A stretch of 62,226 nt of DNA from NCBI GenBank assembly GCA_022340585.1, contig JAJDNS010000096.1:1-62226 (forward strand), in the 5' to 3' direction. Shown here piece by piece: positions 4,045-13,099 of the stretch. The position numbers and the translations under genes were made by a program. This DNA comes from Acidobacteriota bacterium (lineage in GTDB: Bacteria > Acidobacteriota > Vicinamibacteria > Fen-336). How positions within the stretch are numbered: position 1 is the first letter of the stretch; each line of letters begins with the position of its first letter. The notes under the pieces were generated by a model. The model made no database searches. It saw only the letters and a program-made list of their open reading frames with translations, and was not told the origin of the DNA.

Positions 4045-6174
4045 TCACCCCTCGGCGGCCGCCTGCTTCTGCGCCAGAACCTGCAGCTTCTCGATGAGCT
4101 GGGGGCCCGGGATGGGCCGGGGCAGCCGACCCGCGGTGAGCGACATGGGCACGCGCTTGGCCCGCTCGGCCTCGGCCGCGTCCTCCGGGCTGAAGCTCAG
4201 GAAGAACGCGAGGCCGGCGCGGTCCTTCTGCCAGCCCCGGAACAGGCCGGCGACCGTCTGGTCGGGTCGGAAGGCGAGGATGTCGCAGACCGCCACGTTC
4301 AGCTTCTGGGCATCCGGTGTCTTCATCAAGAGAGCCAGCTCCTCCGGGTAGTTGGCGATCTTGACGTCCAGCCCCGCCTCCTCGAGCTCGGCGGCCAGTG
4401 GCTCGAGGCTGGCGGCGTCACGATCCAGCAGCGCCACGCGCAGCCAGGGGTCGCGTCTCTCGTCCCTCTGGCCCACGAGCGCAAGCCCCTCCTGCATGGA
4501 GACGCGCAGGCCCGGGGGCACGAACGGGGTGCGTCGCAGCACGTCCAGTGTCCCCCGCAGGGTCCCCAGGGCCTTCTCCGCCATCTCGTTGGCGTCGCCA
4601 CCGGGCACGCTCGCTTCGCGTGCCTCCCCGAGCTGCTCCCGCATCGAGGCCAGGGCCTCCTCCGACGAGCGCACTGCGGCTTCGGCAGCTCTCTTCTGCT
4701 CCTCCAGGGTATCCGCCCGGCCCCGGACAGCGTCGCGCTCGCCCTCGGTGTCCTGGAGAGTCTTCTCGAGAGAAGCCACCCGAGCCCTCAGCTCACCGGC
4801 TTCGGAGGTGGCGCGCCGCTCCTCCTCCCGGGCGGCCTCCAGCTCGCGCTGCGTGGTGGCCAGGGTGTCCTCGACGCTTCTCGCCGCGTCGGCGGCGGCC
4901 CGGCTCTCGGCCTCGAGACGCTCCAACGTGCCGCGGATTTCGTCCCGTTCGTTCTCCGCCCCTTGCAGGGCCACCTCGAGCGGGGACAAGCGCGCCTTGA
5001 GCGCCTCGACCTCGGCGGCGGCACGCTGCGCCTCCTGGCGCGCCGACTCCAGCTCCTGCTGCGCCGAGGCCTGCGCCTCTTCGGCGGACCGGGCTCCATC
5101 GCTGAGGGCGCGGCGCTGCTCCTCCAGCCGCTCGGCCACCGACGCGTGCTCGGCCTGCAGGGATTCCACCCGCGCGGTGAGCCTCTCGGACTCGTCGCGG
5201 GCGCCATCACGCTCCACCTCTGCGTTCTGGAGGGCCTCCTGGAGCGTGGCCACCCGGGCCTTGAGCTCGTCCCACTCGAGCGTCGAGTGCTCCCCCTCCG
5301 TCCGAGCCGCCTCGAGCTCCTGCCGCGCCGCGCTCAGGGCTTCCTCGGCCGCGCGGGCCCGATCCTCGGTGTCCCGTCCCTGCTCGTCGAGCTCCTTCGC
5401 CCCGGCGAGGACCCGGTCTCGCTCGACCTCCGCCTCCTTCAAGGCCGTCTCGAGGGCAATCAGACGTTCTCGCAGCTCGTCGCGCTCGGCGATGGAGCGC
5501 TGCTCTGCCTGCCGGGCCGCGGCCAGCTCCTTCTCCAGCTCGGGCCCCCGGTCAGCGAGGCCCGGCCCCTCCTTGCCGGCTTCCGCCGCGGGCGGTTGCG
5601 AGGCCCGGAGCCGTTCCAGGTGCCGGCCGGCGTCCTCCTCGAGCCGCTCCGCGACACGCTTCAGCTCGACCACCAGGGATTCGACCCGCTCGGCGGGGCT
5701 GCCGAGGAGCCGTGGCCACACCGGGGCGGCAAGGACCGTGAGGGCGTCGCCCAGGTTCGGGGCCGAGGGGCGGGGGAGACCGCGCAACACGAGCACCCCC
5801 GACTCGCCCTCGTGCACCCAGGGGACGATGCAGTTGTCTCGGAGCTGGACGCCCGGGGCCGACTCGCCCGGCTGGAACAGCGTCGGGCGCTCGAGGCAGC
5901 CAGGAGTCTCTTCGATGAGCCGGGAGAGGGCGCGCTCCGCCCCGAGGGGTCCCGACCCCAGGCTCAGGGCCGGAAGCAGCCGCCAGCCGCTCTCCGCCCT
6001 CGGGTCCCGCACCGCGGCCAGCAGCGCCGACGGTGACGCCCACTCGCGCACACGATCCAGGAAGCGCTCGAGGAGCCCGTCCAGCTCCTGCTCGGCCGCC
6101 AACTCGGCGGCGGCCCGCGCGACGTCTTCGAGCTGCAGGGGCTCCTTGCTGTTCGCGGTCCCGGGGTCGCTCAT
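4045..6174 (-). CDS. Long coiled-coil protein with GAF-like head and receiver-like tail
   Basis: Protein of 709 residues starting MSDPGTANSKEP, chosen because AGGAAGGAG lies 7 nt upstream; a longer in-frame extension to 6528 lacks coding character. Residues ~15-170 resemble a GAF/cofactor-type domain. Residues ~230-530 are a continuous coiled coil rich in Glu, Arg and Ala, built from four near-repeats of 70 residues (ten heptads), each opening with a DELKARVATLQEAL-like phrase; the second carries an 18-residue insertion. The last ~130 residues look like a response-regulator receiver: RVALLDRDAAS at strand 1, VAVCDILAFRPD at the phospho-site and a PRPIPGPQLIEKL end. No HTH or kinase domain is seen. 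A signalling or scaffold role is inference. Confidence 0.7.
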   Translation of the reverse strand: MSDPGTANSKEPLQLEDVARAAAELAAEQELDGLLERFLDRVREWASPSALLAAVRDPRAESGWRLLPALSLGSGPLGAERALSRLIEETPGCLERPTLFQPGESAPGVQLRDNCIVPWVHEGESGVLVLRGLPRPSAPNLGDALTVLAAPVWPRLLGSPAERVESLVVELKRVAERLEEDAGRHLERLRASQPPAAEAGKEGPGLADRGPELEKELAAARQAEQRSIAERDELRERLIALETALKEAEVERDRVLAGAKELDEQGRDTEDRARAAEEALSAARQELEAARTEGEHSTLEWDELKARVATLQEALQNAEVERDGARDESERLTARVESLQAEHASVAERLEEQRRALSDGARSAEEAQASAQQELESARQEAQRAAAEVEALKARLSPLEVALQGAENERDEIRGTLERLEAESRAAADAARSVEDTLATTQRELEAAREEERRATSEAGELRARVASLEKTLQDTEGERDAVRGRADTLEEQKRAAEAAVRSSEEALASMREQLGEAREASVPGGDANEMAEKALGTLRGTLDVLRRTPFVPPGLRVSMQEGLALVGQRDERRDPWLRVALLDRDAASLEPLAAELEEAGLDVKIANYPEELALLMKTPDAQKLNVAVCDILAFRPDQTVAGLFRGWQKDRAGLAFFLSFSPEDAAEAERAKRVPMSLTAGRLPRPIPGPQLIEKLQVLAQKQAAAEG

Positions 6175-6266: not shown

Positions 6267-6296
6267 TTGATTCCCCCGCCAGTGATCTGCGACAAT
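6267..6296 (+). promoter_or_regulatory. Candidate promoter of the MATE leader
   Basis: TTGATT at 6267-6272 and GACAAT at 6291-6296 are separated by 18 bp. Each matches the housekeeping consensus at four of six bases. Transcription would start near 6303, just before the structured leader. No other promoter-like pair is visible between the coiled-coil gene and the MATE gene. Confidence 0.4.
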
Positions 6297-6324
6297 CTCG
6301 GCGCTTCCTAGAGGCGTGGACCCG

Positions 6325-6399
6325 ATGAGAACCCACATCGCCATTCCCGACCCCGGTTCCCGGCCCGTTCCGGGTGCACCGGCCTGCGGAGGTCCATAA
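6325..6399 (+). CDS. Possible leader peptide within the MATE attenuator
   Basis: A 24-codon frame (begins MRTHIAIPDPGS, six prolines) starts 10 nt after GAGG at 6311-6314. Its stop codon lies exactly at the 3' strand of stem P1. A ribosome reaching the stop would cover the GGAGGTCCA antiterminator arm and let the terminator form, whereas a ribosome stalled earlier would leave it free. That geometry fits ribosome-mediated attenuation, as known for some drug-resistance genes. Whether it is translated is unknown. Confidence 0.35.
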   Translation: MRTHIAIPDPGSRPVPGAPACGGP

Positions 6400-6428
6400 C
6401 TCAAGAGCAGAGACCGCACTCATCTCGA

Positions 6429-6465
6429 GCCCTGGACCTCCCGAGGTCCAGGGCTTTTCCTTTTT
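6429..6465 (+). terminator. Intrinsic terminator ahead of the MATE gene
   Basis: GCCCTGGACCTC at 6429-6440 is followed after two bases by its exact complement at 6443-6454, then TTTTCCTTTTT at 6455-6465. The T-tract is on the plus strand only. It lies 16 nt before the MATE start and far from any upstream plus-strand gene, so it must end a leader or small RNA. Confidence 0.85.
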
Positions 6466-6481
6466 AGAGTGAGCCAGCGTC

Positions 6482-7897
6482 ATGAGTCGTCCGGACACGT
6501 CGTACCGACAGATCATCAGCCTGAGCACGCCGGTGATGCTCAGCCAGCTGAGCTACACCGCGATGGGGATCATCGACACCATCATGGTGGGCCGGGTGGG
6601 GGTCGTGGCCCTCGCCAGCGTGGGCCTCGGGAGCATCCTGTTCTGGTGGCTGCTCAGCCTCTTCTGGGGCATGCTCGCCGGCGTCAACACCCTCGTGTCG
6701 CAGGCCGAGGGCGCGAACGACGGCAAGGGGGCCGGGGTGGCCTTCTGGCAGGGGATCTACCTCGGGCTCTTCCTCTCGGTCCTCGTCTTCGTGCTCTGGC
6801 CCCTGGCTCCCCACCTGATGGCCTGGACCGGGGCCTCGCCGGAGGTCCAGGAGAACGCCGCCGCCTACATGCGGATCCGCCTCCTGGGGGCATTCGGCCT
6901 CATGCTCCTGATGGCCTGCGACAACTTCTACCGCGGGATCGGGCGCACGGACGTGCCCATGTGGTTCGGGTTCGTGAAGCTGTTCCTGAACTCGGGGGCC
7001 AACTACGTCTTCATCTTCGGCCACCTCGGCGCGCCCGAGATGGGGGCAGTGGGAGCCGCGGTGGGCACCGCCATCGCCAACACCGTGATCGGGGTGGCCA
7101 TGTTCGTCACCCTCTTCATCCGAGCCGAGTTCCGGAATGTCTACCACCTGCTTCCCAGGGCCGGGCTGCACCGGCGCGTCTTCCGCGCGCTCGTCGTGCT
7201 GAGTCTCCCCATCGGGGTGCAGACCTTCATGGAGATGGGTGGTTTCAGCGTCTTCACTGCAGTCGTGGCGCGCCTGGGCGATCCCCAGCTCGCGGCCACC
7301 GACGCCGTGATCCACGCCTGGAGCGCCGCCTTCATGCTCTCCTACGGCCTGAGCATCGCCGGCCAGACGCTGGTGGGCCAATGCATCGGGGCGGGGGCGA
7401 AGCAGGAAGCTCGCCGGGTGATGCACCGGATCCTGCGGGTCGGCTACCTGCTCATGCTCGCGCTGGGCCTGGTGTATCTGTTTGTGCCGGAGACCCTCAT
7501 GGCGCTCTTCGTCCGCCCGAGCGAGCTCACGGTCCTGCTGCCCTTCGCGCGGCCGCTCTTCACCATCGTGGCCTTCTGCCTCTTCTTCGATCTGACCTTC
7601 ATGGTGATCGCGGGGGGCCTGCGTGGCGCGGGCGACACGACCTACGCGATGTTCGCCAACGTGGCCTCGGCCTGGGTGGTGTTCGTACCCCTGACGCTCT
7701 TCGTGGCGCCGCGCCATGGCCTGGTGGCCGCCTGGGCCTGCGTCATCGTCTACCTGGCGACCATGGCGCTGTTGATCTGGCTCCGCTTTCGAGGCACGGC
7801 CTGGATGAAGCCGGCCGTGGTGAGGGCGGGCTCGGCGGACGCCGCCGCGGCTGCGGAGCCGTCCTCCGAGGTGTCTGCCGCCGTGGAAAGCGGCTGA
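6482..7897 (+). CDS. MATE family multidrug efflux transporter
   Basis: Inner-membrane Na+ or H+ antiporter of the MatE/NorM type, 471 residues, about twelve hydrophobic segments in two homologous halves. Family features include the N-terminal LSTPVMLSQLSYTAMGIIDTIMVGR, the loop GLGSILFW, and in the second half IAGQTLVGQCIGAG and the GLRGAGDTTYAM block after TM10. The last ~20 residues are an Ala/Ser-rich tail. The ribosome binding site is weak (GAGTGAG). Expression is probably controlled by the terminator and alternative pairings just upstream. Substrates cannot be told from the sequence. Confidence 0.92.
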   Translation: MSRPDTSYRQIISLSTPVMLSQLSYTAMGIIDTIMVGRVGVVALASVGLGSILFWWLLSLFWGMLAGVNTLVSQAEGANDGKGAGVAFWQGIYLGLFLSVLVFVLWPLAPHLMAWTGASPEVQENAAAYMRIRLLGAFGLMLLMACDNFYRGIGRTDVPMWFGFVKLFLNSGANYVFIFGHLGAPEMGAVGAAVGTAIANTVIGVAMFVTLFIRAEFRNVYHLLPRAGLHRRVFRALVVLSLPIGVQTFMEMGGFSVFTAVVARLGDPQLAATDAVIHAWSAAFMLSYGLSIAGQTLVGQCIGAGAKQEARRVMHRILRVGYLLMLALGLVYLFVPETLMALFVRPSELTVLLPFARPLFTIVAFCLFFDLTFMVIAGGLRGAGDTTYAMFANVASAWVVFVPLTLFVAPRHGLVAAWACVIVYLATMALLIWLRFRGTAWMKPAVVRAGSADAAAAAEPSSEVSAAVESG

Positions 7898-9154: not shown

Positions 9155-9429
9155 GTCTCAGCGTCCTTCCCGGAGGGCATCCTGCGGGGGGCGGGAGGAG
9201 CGACTGCCCCAGGGGGGCGGTACGGGCGCCCACGGCGTCCTCGACCGGGGAATCATCATCGCACGGTTCGTGCCCGCCCAGGGGCTAGCATATCATTGAC
9301 CTTGCTCGCCCCGATGAACGAAACCGAGCTGTCGCGCGTGAACGCCCCGCCGGAGCCGATGTATGAGCGAGTCGGCCCCGCTCGTCGTCGGACCGCCCTT
9401 CTGCCTGCCTCGGGGTGGAGCTACGTCCG
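9155..9429. other. Divergent intergenic region with a short upstream frame
   Basis: The gap lies between the small Cys-rich gene (leftward) and the first CelD-type gene (rightward). TAGCAT (9286-9291) and TATCAT (9291-9296) are -10-like. A 39-codon frame from ATG 9314 ends in TGA at 9431-9433, overlapping the CelD ATG as ATGA, the usual layout of translational coupling. It has no clear ribosome binding site, so it may be chance. Confidence 0.35.
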
Positions 9430-10563
9430 ATGAAGATCGACACGGTCTCCCGGATCGCCGAGTTCGAGACGCTCCGCAACGAATGGGACGCGGTGGTTTC
9501 GACCGCTCGGTACCCTCACCTGTGCTTCACCCACGACTGGCTGGTGGTCTGGTGGCAGGCCTTCGATCGCCAGGAGAGACGGGTGGCCGTGTACCTGGGC
9601 CGGGAGGGGGACAAGGTCGTCGCCGCGGTCCCGGTCCAGCGACGAGCCACGGCGGTGGCAGGGATCCCCGTGCGGAGCCTCGAGCTCACCGCCAACCTCC
9701 ACACCTTTCGCCTCGACTTCGTCGTGCCCGGTGACCGAGACCCCGGGCCGTACGTCGAGTCCCTCCTCGACGGCGTCCTCGCGGGGCGCGAGATGCCCGA
9801 CGTCCTCTTCTTCAAGGATCTCCCGAGCGACTCTCCCACCGTGGCCGCACTGGAACGACTCGCGGCGCGCCGACGGCTGGGGATCGGTCGGGAGAACGAG
9901 CGGCGCTCTCCCTACGTGTGCACCGACGGCCCCTGGGAGGACTACTTCAGAGGACTCTCGAAGAACCTGCGGTCCTCGCTGCGCCGCTCGCGCAAGCGGT
10001 GCCAGGAGGCAGGGGTGTCCTTCGAGCGCGTCGTCGATGAACCTCGGGGGGCCAGCCTTCTCGAGGAAGGACTCGCCCTCGAGGCCGAGGGCTGGAAGGG
10101 CCGGGGGGGAACCGCCATCCTCGCCAGTCCGGAGGAGACCTCCTTCTACCGTGGGCTCCTGCGGAGGTTCGAAGGCAGCGGTCGGCTGGCACAATACGCC
10201 CTGCGCCTCGGCCAACGGCTGATCGCCTGGGACCTCTGCGTGACCGAGGCCGGGGCCAGCCACGACCTGAAGACGGCCTACGCCGAGGAGCAGGCTCAGC
10301 TGGCGCCGGGGTTTGCCCTGCAGATGGAGATGATGAAGCACGCGTTCCGGGCCCCGGAGGTGTGCATCTACGACATGCTGCCCCCACCCGCAGCCTACAA
10401 GCTTCGGTGGACCCCGGACGCCCTCGACCAGGTGAGCCTCCGGCTCTACTGCCGGACTCCCCGCGGGCGTCTCACCCACCTGCTTCAGGGACGGCTGCGT
10501 CCCCTGCTGCGGCGGTCGACGCTCCTGCGACGCGTCAAGAGGCGGGTACTCGGACCTCGATGA
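9430..10563 (+). CDS. CelD/BcsL-type GNAT family acyltransferase-like protein
   Basis: 377 residues of the Acetyltransf_6 (BcsL/CelD) family: two GNAT-like folds in tandem, relatives of Fem aminoacyltransferases. Visible signatures are THDWLVVWWQAF near the N-terminus, the basic motif KNLRSSLRRSRKR near residue 180, and the C-terminal IYDMLPPPAAYKLRW. Members occur in cellulose and exopolysaccharide loci and are thought to modify polysaccharide or peptide substrates. The ATG is preferred over a GTG five codons upstream because GGTGGAG lies 10 nt before it. It is paralogous to the two leftward genes nearby but lacks their C-terminal cysteines. Confidence 0.8.
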   Translation: MKIDTVSRIAEFETLRNEWDAVVSTARYPHLCFTHDWLVVWWQAFDRQERRVAVYLGREGDKVVAAVPVQRRATAVAGIPVRSLELTANLHTFRLDFVVPGDRDPGPYVESLLDGVLAGREMPDVLFFKDLPSDSPTVAALERLAARRRLGIGRENERRSPYVCTDGPWEDYFRGLSKNLRSSLRRSRKRCQEAGVSFERVVDEPRGASLLEEGLALEAEGWKGRGGTAILASPEETSFYRGLLRRFEGSGRLAQYALRLGQRLIAWDLCVTEAGASHDLKTAYAEEQAQLAPGFALQMEMMKHAFRAPEVCIYDMLPPPAAYKLRWTPDALDQVSLRLYCRTPRGRLTHLLQGRLRPLLRRSTLLRRVKRRVLGPR

Positions 10564-10582
10564 CCGGCCGTGCAGGGGCCGG
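10564..10582 (+). terminator. GC hairpin directly after the CelD-type gene
   Basis: CCGGCC (10564-10569) and GGCCGG (10577-10582) form a hairpin with a 7-nt loop, overlapping the end of the TGA stop. There is no T-run, so it may be a weak terminator or an RNA-stabilising stem. The palindromic repeat element starts 14 nt further on. Confidence 0.4.
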
Positions 10583-10595
10583 CAGTCTCTCCGGG

Positions 10596-10667
10596 GACCG
10601 AACCGGCCTGCGGCCGGCTGCCTTGGCCAGGGACACGATCCCGCCATGGCGATCGTGTCCTCGGCAG
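10596..10667 (+). repeat. 3'-end palindromic repeat element, copy A
   Basis: The element of about 70 bp starts GACCGAACCGGCC, folds first into a CCGGCC-type hairpin, then has TGCCTTGGCCAGG, then a long palindrome with arms GACACGATC and GATCGTGTC around a GCCATGG-like centre. It lies 33 bp behind the CelD-type gene, in the same orientation, between convergent genes. Related copies lie at 20968, 50112, 55301 (minus) and 60381 (minus, partial). Confidence 0.85.
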
Positions 10668-10701
10668 GTGCGGGACGACACGGGTACGTCGCCCGGGCCC
10701 C

Positions 10702-11886
10702 TCAGTGACCCCGGCGCCCCTTCAGCCTCCGTAGCCCCTGTTCGAGCCCCCTGAGAAGCGACGGGGCCCCGGCCGCCAGGGCCGGTCGAATCGTGCCCCG
10801 AGCCAGGGAGCAGGCACGGCATCCGACGGCTCCACCCGAATACACGCAGGCGTGGACATGCTCGCGGAGATCGTTGGCCACCTCGCGCTTCCAGCGCATC
10901 TCCGCTCCCAGCAGGTCCACGGTGGTCACCCCGGAGGCGAACGCGTCCTCCAGGGCGGCGAGGACCACCGCGATCCCCGGCGAGTACCGGGCCTGAGAGT
11001 GGTCGTACGACGTCCACAGCGCGTACAGCCGTTGCCGGAAGCGCATGCCCAGGAAGTGCGCGATGGGGTGGGAGTCGAGGTAGAGGACGTGGAGTCGGAG
11101 CCATCCCCGGTCCGCACCGCGCCGGGCCAGCTCGGGGTAGAAGACGCGGCCTCGTCGCTGGGTGGAGATGGCGAGGCCTGCCTCGTGCTTCCAGCTGGCC
11201 TCCTCGATGGCGAGAACGCCGGGCAGGACCTCGTCGAACTGTGCACGCGTCGTCACCTTTCGAATCTCCACTCGCCCCTGCTTCTCCAGCTGGCGACGCT
11301 TGCGACGCCACTCGTGCCGGACGTGCTTGGACCTCGATCCCAGATAGGCGTCCCAGCCTCCCCCCGGGACAACCAACCGGGAGGGCTCTGCCGGTCTCAC
11401 GAAGGCGTGCAGGCCCCGGGCTCGGGCGGCCTCGGGCAGGGCCGGCACGAGGGGCGAGGACGCCGGGCAACGAAGCAGCCCCAGACGCCAATGGCGACGC
11501 GTCCGCCCGAGATGGCCCAGCGCGGCGTCGAGGACCTCCGCCGCCGGCAGGGTGAAGGGGAAGTCCACGCGCTCCTCGGGCACGGTCAGGGCGCCGCGGC
11601 ACCAGACGTCGGCCTCCCGATCGACGATGAGGGGGGCCGCCCCCACGAGCCGACCTTCTCGGCGGATGAGCAGTATCGCGACGGGTGCCGTCGGCCAGTA
11701 GGACTCGAGCTTGGCGCTCGTCCACTCCCAGGAGTTGTAGAGGGTCGCCTCCGGCAGCTCCTCGACGAGGCGGCGCCACTCGCCCTCGTGAGCGGCGAGG
11801 TCGGCAACGCGTGTGATCTCCTGGGTGGTGAGCGGCGCGGAGGGCGCGTGGTGAGCGACGGCGTTTACCGGCGTGGCAGCGTGCAT
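10702..11886 (-). CDS. CelD/BcsL-type GNAT family protein with C-terminal Cys motif
   Basis: 394 residues, Acetyltransf_6 family. The first fold carries LYNSWEWTSAKLESYWP and the second begins at the basic block SKHVRHEWRRKRRQLE, followed by VDLLGAEMRWKREVAN. A motif C-V-Y-S-x5-C-x2-C (HACVYSGGAVGCRAC) lies near the C-terminus and is shared with the upstream paralogue at a level that suggests function, perhaps metal binding. The start is set by AAGGAGGG 7 nt upstream; a long GC-rich frame extends further but belongs to the other gene's shadow. Last gene of a three-gene leftward operon. Confidence 0.82.
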   Translation of the reverse strand: MHAATPVNAVAHHAPSAPLTTQEITRVADLAAHEGEWRRLVEELPEATLYNSWEWTSAKLESYWPTAPVAILLIRREGRLVGAAPLIVDREADVWCRGALTVPEERVDFPFTLPAAEVLDAALGHLGRTRRHWRLGLLRCPASSPLVPALPEAARARGLHAFVRPAEPSRLVVPGGGWDAYLGSRSKHVRHEWRRKRRQLEKQGRVEIRKVTTRAQFDEVLPGVLAIEEASWKHEAGLAISTQRRGRVFYPELARRGADRGWLRLHVLYLDSHPIAHFLGMRFRQRLYALWTSYDHSQARYSPGIAVVLAALEDAFASGVTTVDLLGAEMRWKREVANDLREHVHACVYSGGAVGCRACSLARGTIRPALAAGAPSLLRGLEQGLRRLKGRRGH

Positions 11887-11902
11887 GTCTGCCCTCCTTA
11901 GC

Positions 11903-13099
11903 CTAGGACCCACGTCGAGGAGGGCCCTGTCCTCGCCGAAACCACTGCGCCAGCACCCCGGCCGACTCCAGCACGACCGGAGCCTTCGTCTCGAGGAAGG
12001 GCTTGACCGTGCCTCGGGCCAGGCGGCACGCGTGGCAGTCGAGATGGGAGGCGGTGAAGACGCAGGCGTGCAGGTTCTGGCGTCCGCCGTTGGCCGCCTC
12101 GACCTTCCATCGCGAGTCGAAGCCGAGGAAGTCGATCGTCGAGACGCCCTCCTCGAATGCCTCCTGGAGCGCCTGCAGAACCACGACGACACCCGGGGAC
12201 AGCTTCGCCCACGCCACATCGTAGGACGTCTTCAGGCCGTAGAGCTGCTTGCGGAAGGCCACGCCGTAGAAATAGGCGACGGGCCGGCCGTCGAGGTAGA
12301 GCAGGTGGAGTCGGAGCCAGCTCCGCTCGGCGCAGCGCCGGGCGAGCGAGCGGTAGAAGCGCTCGGCTCGCTGGCCAGCGATGGAGCTGCCCTCGCCCTC
12401 CTTCCAACTCGCGGACTCGATGGCCACGACGTCGTCAAAGACCTCGTCGCTCTCCTTCGGCGATCGGATCGTTCGGATCTCGACGGCTCCCGCGCTCTCG
12501 AGCTTGCGCTGCTTTCGGCGCCACTCCCGCCGCACCTTGCTCGAGCGCGAGGCAAGGTAGGCGTCCCAGCCCCCATCGGTGTGGATGAGACGGACCGTGT
12601 CGGCTTCCCGGACGAAGGTGGAGAGTCCGTTCCGACGCGCGGCCTCGGGGAGCGCGGCGGCCACCTCGGAGTCGGCGGGCAGGCGGCCGAGCCCGATCCG
12701 CCACCGCCGGCGCGACGCCCGGAGCTTCACGAAGAGAGAGTCGAGGACCTCGGGGACGTGCTCGGTGCAGAGCAGGTCGAAGCCGTCCTCGGGCAGCGTC
12801 AACGAGCCACGGCACCACTGCTCCCCCTGCCGATCGACGACGAAGGGGGCAGCCGCCACCAGTCGCCCCTGGCATCGGACGAGGAGGAGCGCCAGCTCTT
12901 CATCCGCCCAGTAGGACTCCAGTCGCGCGGTGAGCCACTCCCACGTGTGGAAGAAGCTTGCCGCCGGTGCCTCCTCGATGAAGGCGCCCCACTCCTCCTC
13001 GAGCGCGGCGAAGGCATCGAGGCTTCGCACCTCGTCGACCACCAGTGGGCCCAATGCCGGAGCCGGATGCCCCCTACTCTCGGCTGGATCCGTCGCCAT
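11903..13099 (-). CDS. CelD/BcsL-type GNAT family protein with C-terminal Cys motif
   Basis: 398 residues, closest relative of the next gene downstream: matching blocks include FFHTWEWLTARLESYWAD, SKVRREWRRKQRKLE, STIDFLGFDSRWKVEAAN and the cysteine motif HACVFTASHLDCHACRLARG. The pair probably arose by tandem duplication and then diverged. The 5' end overlaps the end of the gene upstream by 26 bp, so translation is likely coupled. Family members sit in exopolysaccharide or surface-modification loci; the acyl donor and acceptor here are unknown. Confidence 0.82.
   Translation of the reverse strand: MATDPAESRGHPAPALGPLVVDEVRSLDAFAALEEEWGAFIEEAPAASFFHTWEWLTARLESYWADEELALLLVRCQGRLVAAAPFVVDRQGEQWCRGSLTLPEDGFDLLCTEHVPEVLDSLFVKLRASRRRWRIGLGRLPADSEVAAALPEAARRNGLSTFVREADTVRLIHTDGGWDAYLASRSSKVRREWRRKQRKLESAGAVEIRTIRSPKESDEVFDDVVAIESASWKEGEGSSIAGQRAERFYRSLARRCAERSWLRLHLLYLDGRPVAYFYGVAFRKQLYGLKTSYDVAWAKLSPGVVVVLQALQEAFEEGVSTIDFLGFDSRWKVEAANGGRQNLHACVFTASHLDCHACRLARGTVKPFLETKAPVVLESAGVLAQWFRRGQGPPRRGS

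What the first reader, a model, noticed from the sequence alone, without database searches (positions are those of the whole stretch)
6303..6481. Candidate attenuator or new riboswitch controlling a MATE efflux pump
The leader has a terminator with a 12 bp stem and T-tract 16 nt before the gene. Its 5' arm (6433-6441) is perfectly complementary over 9 bp to 6388-6396, and that same arm can instead pair with 6316-6322. So two exclusive folds exist, the hallmark of transcription attenuation. A 24-codon Pro-rich frame with a ribosome binding site (GAGG at 6311) stops exactly where the switching arm ends. This supports ribosome-stalling attenuation, perhaps induced by antibiotics that the pump exports; a ligand-binding riboswitch is the alternative. 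I recognise no known class.
Basis: partly seen in the sequence, partly recalled or inferred. Interest (0 to 1): 0.82.

Follow-up and report, generated by a model that had tools for sequence, protein, structure and literature searches.

The report
Ribosome-read attenuator before MATE pump
A bacterium, probably of the phylum Acidobacteriota, carries just before the gene for a MATE-family efflux pump a 24-codon reading frame whose last codons are exactly complementary to the first arm of a transcription terminator; this is predicted to act as a switch that would raise pump expression when ribosomes stall before finishing the short frame, a known kind of control at a gene type where our searches found no earlier report of it.

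Summary
A strong intrinsic terminator (6427-6465) precedes the MATE start (6482). Its 5' arm (6433-6441) is perfectly complementary to 6388-6396, the last three codons of a 24-codon ORF (6325-6399) with a Shine-Dalgarno; 6317-6322 can pair with 6391-6396. This is the 1-2-3-4 arm layout of trp-type attenuators. The same-genus genome G001 has the same layout before the orthologous MATE gene. There, leader codons 2-18 have drifted at the neutral rate (29 of 51 bases identical; MATE four-fold sites 142 of 252), while codons 19-stop (19 of 21) and the terminator (37 of 39) are conserved. That argues against an aptamer, and no control-codon run is kept. Modelled ribosomes at codons 1-17 allow the antiterminator; at codons 20-24 they block arm 2-arm 3 pairing, in both species. 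A pheA-like leader of the same class behaves similarly; a second control did not. It is not 6S (found elsewhere in the genome) and matches no Rfam family at gathering. Best reading: ribosome-mediated transcription attenuation, probably induced by slowed translation, closest to bmrB of Bacillus. The inducer is unknown, only two leader sequences were found, and covariation could not be tested.

The parts
6267..6296 (+). Predicted promoter: TTGATT (6267-6272), 18-nt spacer, extended -10 TG-C-GACAAT (6288-6296); predicted start of transcription about 6302
   Evidence: Read from sequence; G001 has TTGAAC-17-AACAAT at the same place. 8 of 12 consensus matches by my count; the scanner, which asks for 9, reported none. 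Predicted only.
6310..6314 (+). Shine-Dalgarno AGAGG of the leader ORF
   Evidence: Sequence; GAGG kept in G001.
6317..6322 (+). Arm 1 (TGGACC), between Shine-Dalgarno and ATG; pairs with arm 2
   Evidence: Pair probabilities 0.93-1.0 in the window and 0.73-0.83 in G001 in the RNA that ends before arm 3.
6325..6399 (+). Leader ORF, 24 codons, MRTHIAIPDPGSRPVPGAPACGGP*
   Evidence: G001 has 24 codons, MKNRNRIIDAGNFPVTAVPACGGP*, no indel. Translation not shown.
6388..6396 (+). Arm 2 (GGAGGTCCA): codons Gly-Gly-Pro just before the stop; pairs with arm 1 or arm 3
   Evidence: Identical in G001; 19 of 21 bases of codons 19-stop conserved.
6433..6441 (+). Arm 3 (TGGACCTCC): 5' arm of the terminator and 3' arm of the antiterminator
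   Evidence: Exact complement of arm 2; 8 bp kept in G001.
6427..6465 (+). Intrinsic terminator: stem 6427-6456 plus T tract to 6465
   Evidence: 37 of 39 ungapped columns identical in G001, one arm change being C to T that leaves a G-U pair.
6482..7897 (+). MATE-family efflux transporter, NorM-like, 471 aa
   Evidence: PF01554 194.3 bits; TIGR00797 267 bits, above its cut-off; the 7 other NCBIfam models matched, NorM among them, stay below theirs.

Best explanation
The leader at 6303-6481 is most likely a ribosome-mediated transcription attenuator: a 24-codon leader ORF, whose last codons are complementary to the 5' arm of an intrinsic terminator, is predicted to report whether ribosomes reach its end and so to set read-through into the MATE gene. 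Shown by sequence: the four mutually complementary arms, the ORF with a Shine-Dalgarno, the terminator, and their presence in a second species. Predicted by folding: a ribosome held at codons 1-17 leaves arm 2 free, arm 2 pairs with arm 3 before arm 4 is made, and transcription would continue; a ribosome at codon 20 to stop covers arm 2, so the terminator would form. Without any translation, arm 1 can pair with arm 2 first and might also favour termination; this state is the least certain. Arm 1 lies between the Shine-Dalgarno and the ATG, so a ribosome parked at the start would mask it. Inferred: the natural inducer is slowed elongation in general, such as by ribosome-targeting antibiotics, because no run of control codons and no conserved N-terminal peptide was seen.
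For: Four-arm layout in both species of the genus. The gene upstream is most likely divergent, so plus-strand transcripts that meet the terminator would begin in this region. Antiterminator -24.8 and -25.5 kcal/mol against terminator -23.8 and -20.9. Ribosome scan: mean probability of arm 2-arm 3 pairing 0.98-1.00 at the 11 P-site codons tested from 1 to 17, 0.62 at 18 in both species, 0.03 and 0.18 at 19, 0.00 at 20-24; with footprints of +12 to +18 the drop stays near codons 17-20. Control: the pheA-like leader MHGAVTVSRRFTFTFVTLRREGG* (L050) also drops near codons 18-20, with its Phe codons 11, 13 and 15 inside the permissive zone. Conservation: codons 2-18 29 of 51, equal to four-fold sites 142 of 252; codons 19-stop 19 of 21 (p 0.0008); terminator 37 of 39 (p 9e-8).
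Against: Only two leader sequences, from one genus, so covariation could not be tested. Full-length RNA favours the terminator in the window (-70.9 against -63.5) but the antiterminator in G001 (-69.4 against -66.0), and the ribosome-free RNA cut before arm 4 favours arm 2-arm 3 at 0.99 in both, so the no-translation state is uncertain. With a looser measure (terminator 5' arm paired with anything upstream), residual pairing of 0.12-0.48 remains at codons 20-24, with a partial rise at 22-24 in the window. A second control, the L039 leader with CPCCRSC, gave no clean profile. The open frame over 17 neutral codons without an indel could persist partly by chance. The RNAalifold consensus used for model R1 places a different hairpin around the leader stop. 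Promoter match is weak. No RNA or ribosome data.
Confidence: 0.72

Rival explanations
1. Ligand-binding riboswitch: the branched fold closed by 6316-6322/6391-6397 is an aptamer whose ligand binding stabilises arm 1-arm 2 and so controls the terminator.
For: The whole leader with its terminator folds well (z -4.94, 0 of 200 shuffles as stable); without the terminator the signal is modest (z -2.14, 5 of 200). The arm 1-arm 2 domain is predicted in both species.
Against: The interior (codons 2-18) is only 29 of 51 identical, the neutral level, and its hairpins differ in G001. Rfam: 0 matches at gathering in the window; at E up to 10 the region gave 7 matches, all far below gathering and none named a riboswitch, 2 of them over the terminator hairpin and 5 on the minus strand.
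Confidence: 0.1
2. Arrest-peptide attenuator of the TnaC/SecM sort: the conserved end PACGGP* stalls the ribosome at the stop, and a small molecule changes the stall and thus pump expression.
For: PACGGP* is identical in both species while most of the rest drifted; Pro before the stop recalls TnaC (24 residues ending in Pro, recalled). Codons 19-21, outside the arm 2-arm 3 helix, are also kept, and both changes in codons 19-stop are silent.
Against: Codons 22-24 must be kept for arm 2 anyway, and codons 19-21 could be kept for a local hairpin (TGCGG/CCGCA). Of codons 2-18 five residues (I7, D9, G11, P14, V15) are shared, at neutral base identity.
Confidence: 0.12
3. Constitutive partial terminator or a small RNA gene with its own terminator, with no regulation.
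For: The predicted promoter-to-terminator distance of about 160 nt fits a small RNA; no expression data.
Against: Arm 2 is conserved and sits exactly at the end of an ORF of conserved length; the complement is unlikely by chance in each species.
Confidence: 0.05
4. 6S-type RNA.
For: An irregular hairpin of about 100 nt lies upstream of the terminator.
Against: RF00013 finds one match in this genome, elsewhere (C82:45380-45557, 85.2 bits), and nothing here at E up to 10.
Confidence: 0.01

Closest known systems
bmrB leader of bmrCD, Bacillus subtilis (PMC4191407, passages seen)
   Same: Leader ORF, terminator, antiterminator and predicted anti-antiterminator before a multidrug exporter; lincomycin, chloramphenicol or erythromycin raise transcription of the pump genes.
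   Different: bmrB has 53 codons and the terminator lies inside the ORF; the pump is an ABC transporter; different phylum. Here arm 2 is the end of a 24-codon ORF and the terminator follows it.
Amino-acid attenuators (trp/phe type; layout recalled), such as the pheA-like leader at L050
   Same: Arm 2 at the leader's last codons and stop, switch near codon 18-20 in the model.
   Different: No run of control codons in the MATE leader.
tnaC leader of tnaCAB, E. coli (details recalled; listing and abstract starts seen)
   Same: 24-residue leader ending in Pro-stop.
   Different: tnaC uses Rho and Trp-dependent arrest (recalled); here an intrinsic terminator, and a ribosome at the stop is predicted to favour termination.
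mdtU-mdtJI, E. coli (PMC7815308, passages seen)
   Same: Leader ORF before an efflux pump gene, best conserved at its C-terminus.
   Different: Rho-dependent and spermidine-induced; the pump is a spermidine exporter, not MATE.
Guanidine-IV riboswitch, some before MATE genes (PMC7736828, passages seen)
   Same: Controls transcription termination; MATE is among its gene classes.
   Different: Highly conserved loop nucleotides across phyla; here the leader interior is not conserved, and no Rfam model matches at gathering.

Membership tests
Ribosome-mediated transcription attenuators | Short leader ORF with ribosome binding site | tested here: met
   ORF 6325-6399, GAGG 6311-6314; 24 codons also in G001. 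Translation itself not shown
Ribosome-mediated transcription attenuators | Mutually exclusive terminator and antiterminator sharing one arm | tested here: met
   Arms 2-3 and 3-4 in both species; sequence and folding only
Ribosome-mediated transcription attenuators | Ribosome position in the leader decides the fold | tested here: inconclusive
   Supported in a folding model, with residual pairing at codons 20-24; no experiment
Ribosome-mediated transcription attenuators | Compensatory changes in the arms across relatives | tested here: inconclusive
   Two sequences; one C to T giving G-U in the terminator
Ribosome-mediated transcription attenuators | Read-through changes with leader translation | not testable with these tools
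   Needs RNA or reporter data
Amino-acid (trp/phe-type) attenuators | Run of codons for the sensed amino acid in the permissive zone | tested here: not met
   No conserved run in codons 2-18
Guanidine-IV or any Rfam riboswitch | Match to a family model | tested here: not met
   0 matches at gathering in the window; none of the 7 matches at E up to 10 is named a riboswitch. Whether guanidine-IV is among the 4227 models was not checked
6S RNA (RF00013) | Model match at this place | tested here: not met
   Only match in the genome is at C82

The most novel reading that the evidence does not exclude
The leader encodes a new arrest peptide, PACGGP*, which holds the ribosome over arm 2 at its own stop codon and keeps the pump off, until a translation-perturbing compound that the MATE pump exports shifts ribosomes upstream: a drug sensor built from the end of a peptide whose first 18 residues are free to vary.
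Probability: 0.13. Interest if true: 0.72.

Novelty: new member of a known kind. Interest (0 to 1): 0.45.

Why it matters
[quoted passage not shown] This would be a MATE pump under ribosome-read attenuation in that phylum, with a clear prediction: translation inhibitors that halt ribosomes before codon 18 induce it. It also suggests how neutral drift inside a leader can help tell an attenuator from a riboswitch when covariation data are missing.

Tried and rejected
6S RNA was rejected, as was a known Rfam riboswitch. Starvation sensing through Pro or Cys was rejected: Pro falls from 6 to 3 in G001, and a ribosome waiting at the single conserved Cys codon (21; P-site codon 20) blocks arm 2-arm 3 pairing in the model (0.00).

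A wider family was sought and not found. MATE orthologues at E <= 1e-80 were in 2 of 149 class genomes. At E <= 1e-60, 17 of 396 phylum genomes matched, own included; the upstream DNA of the 16 others showed no such leader by inspection (six were first printed in the wrong orientation and redone). One of them, L018, has a terminator-like hairpin upstream, whose 5' arm has only a 5-nt upstream complement. The covariance model of the leader's 3' part scored 115.4 and 110.9 bits in the two species; matches at E <= 0.1 were in 18 of 193 class genomes, the next best at 38.2 bits (with filters that lose some weak matches). The 17 other loci were printed: unrelated leaders, terminators or chance by my reading. 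Genome contigs gave one relative among 27 candidate stretches, L015, whose contig has the length of G001:C157 and whose match starts at the same base. An extended apical antiterminator helix is predicted in both species but not with matching columns, so I claim no covariation.

Full report
What is there. The window is contig C14 of a 6.26-Mb genome; the window is 70% G+C. The only same-genus genome listed among its 60 relatives is G001. The contig of G001 that bears the MATE gene agrees in length and match position with a named record titled as an Acidobacteria bacterium, so the phylum is inferred. On the minus strand an ORF most likely starts at 6174: I chose that ATG by eye because the bases around it are conserved in G001; the mechanical frame stays open to 6528 and the protein has no Pfam match. 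The MATE gene starts at 6482 on the plus strand. Between them lie a predicted promoter (6267-6296), a Shine-Dalgarno, a 24-codon ORF (6325-6399), and an intrinsic terminator with a T tract to 6465. The pump is a MATE transporter of the NorM-like kind; it passes the subfamily model TIGR00797 but no equivalog cut-off, so its substrate is unknown.

The switch. Four segments are mutually complementary: arm 1 TGGACC (6317-6322), arm 2 GGAGGTCCA (6388-6396), arm 3 TGGACCTCC (6433-6441) and arm 4 (within 6443-6455). Arms 1-2 and 3-4, or 2-3 (with 1-4), can form. In the RNA that ends before arm 3, arm 1-arm 2 pairs have probabilities 0.93-1.0 in the window and 0.73-0.83 in G001. The antiterminator region is -24.8 and -25.5 kcal/mol, the terminator -23.8 and -20.9. 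Shuffle controls reach the observed complement in 18 of 2000 and 20 of 2000, and the antiterminator energy in 2 of 500 and 0 of 500.

Comparison with the relative. MATE four-fold degenerate sites are 142 of 252 identical, which I take as the neutral level. Leader codons 2-18 are 29 of 51 identical, indistinguishable from it, without an indel. Codons 19-stop are 19 of 21 identical (both changes silent: GCC/GCG and TAA/TAG), the stop-to-terminator stretch 21 of 26 ungapped columns, and the terminator 37 of 39 ungapped columns. An aptamer should be most conserved exactly where this leader is not. What is kept is a start, a length, an end that doubles as arm 2, and a terminator: the parts that a ribosome-read attenuator needs.

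Ribosome position. With everything up to the leading edge of a ribosome left out, arm 2-arm 3 pairing stays at 0.98-1.00 at the tested P-site codons 1-17 and is 0.00 from codon 20 in both species. The place of the drop moves by about two codons when the footprint is varied from +12 to +18; on a looser measure, pairing of the terminator's 5' arm with anything upstream, 0.12-0.48 remains at codons 20-24. As a control, a pheA-like leader of another genome of the class (L050, Phe at codons 11, 13 and 15) behaves similarly, falling from about 0.74 to 0.11-0.19 at its last codon. A second control, L039 before a gene that reads as cysteine synthase, gave no clear profile. Thus the MATE leader has the geometry of an amino-acid attenuator but lacks control codons. 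The simplest inference is that it responds to slowed or halted elongation in general, as reported for bmrB of B. subtilis with ribosome-targeting antibiotics (PMC4191407, passages). That inducer is inferred, not shown.

Limits. Two sequences from one genus cannot show covariation. Energies of the full leader favour the terminator in the window (-70.9 against -63.5) and the antiterminator in G001 (-69.4 against -66.0), so the state without ribosomes is open. There are no transcript data. Beyond the genus the leader was not found: 2 of 193 genomes of the class have it by model search, and MATE relatives of 46-50% identity elsewhere in the phylum lack it by inspection (16 of 16).

Literature. I found no report of ribosome-mediated attenuation of a MATE gene: a search for uORF, MATE family, attenuation, terminator and antibiotic returned 0 papers; the 20 listed of 29 papers, the 1 and the 3 do not announce one in title or start of abstract. 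The library lacks most subscription papers. Guanidine-IV riboswitches precede some MATE genes (PMC7736828, passages), but their hallmark is conserved loop nucleotides, and this leader's interior is not conserved.

Verdict. An attenuator of a known kind, well built, at an unusual target, in a phylum where such elements are poorly described. Observation confirmed; interpretation partly supported; new member of a known kind.

Noticed in passing
L050, about 1410-1560 on the match strand (G106:C423): A gene that reads by eye as prephenate dehydratase (pheA) is preceded by a leader ORF MHGAVTVSRRFTFTFVTLRREGG* whose last codons are complementary to the 5' arm of the following terminator: a likely phenylalanine attenuator.
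   Followed up: partly
L034 (G028:C146), L039 (G072:C13), L041 (G131:C46): Cys-rich leader frames (CVCMC, CPCCRSC, VCCCCC) precede genes that read by eye as cysD, cysteine synthase and siroheme synthase, each with a terminator: possible cysteine attenuators of sulfur assimilation in this class. L039 gave no clean ribosome profile.
   Followed up: partly
L035, L037, L042 (three genomes of family f8): A shared leader with GGAGGTGGCGTCCTCGTAGG(G)ACCTCCAGC and a downstream terminator; no Rfam match at gathering.
   Followed up: no
6385-6389 and 6409-6413: TGCGG around the leader's Cys codon is complementary to CCGCA downstream of the stop in both species, and AGACCGCACTC after the stop is fully conserved, more than a plain loop needs; the RNAalifold consensus of model R1 also draws a hairpin around the stop.
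   Followed up: partly
9415-13099: Three neighbouring ORFs of about 380-505 aa (9415-10563 +, 10702-12219 -, 11903-13099 -) look like paralogous acetyltransferase-type proteins by eye; not searched.
   Followed up: no
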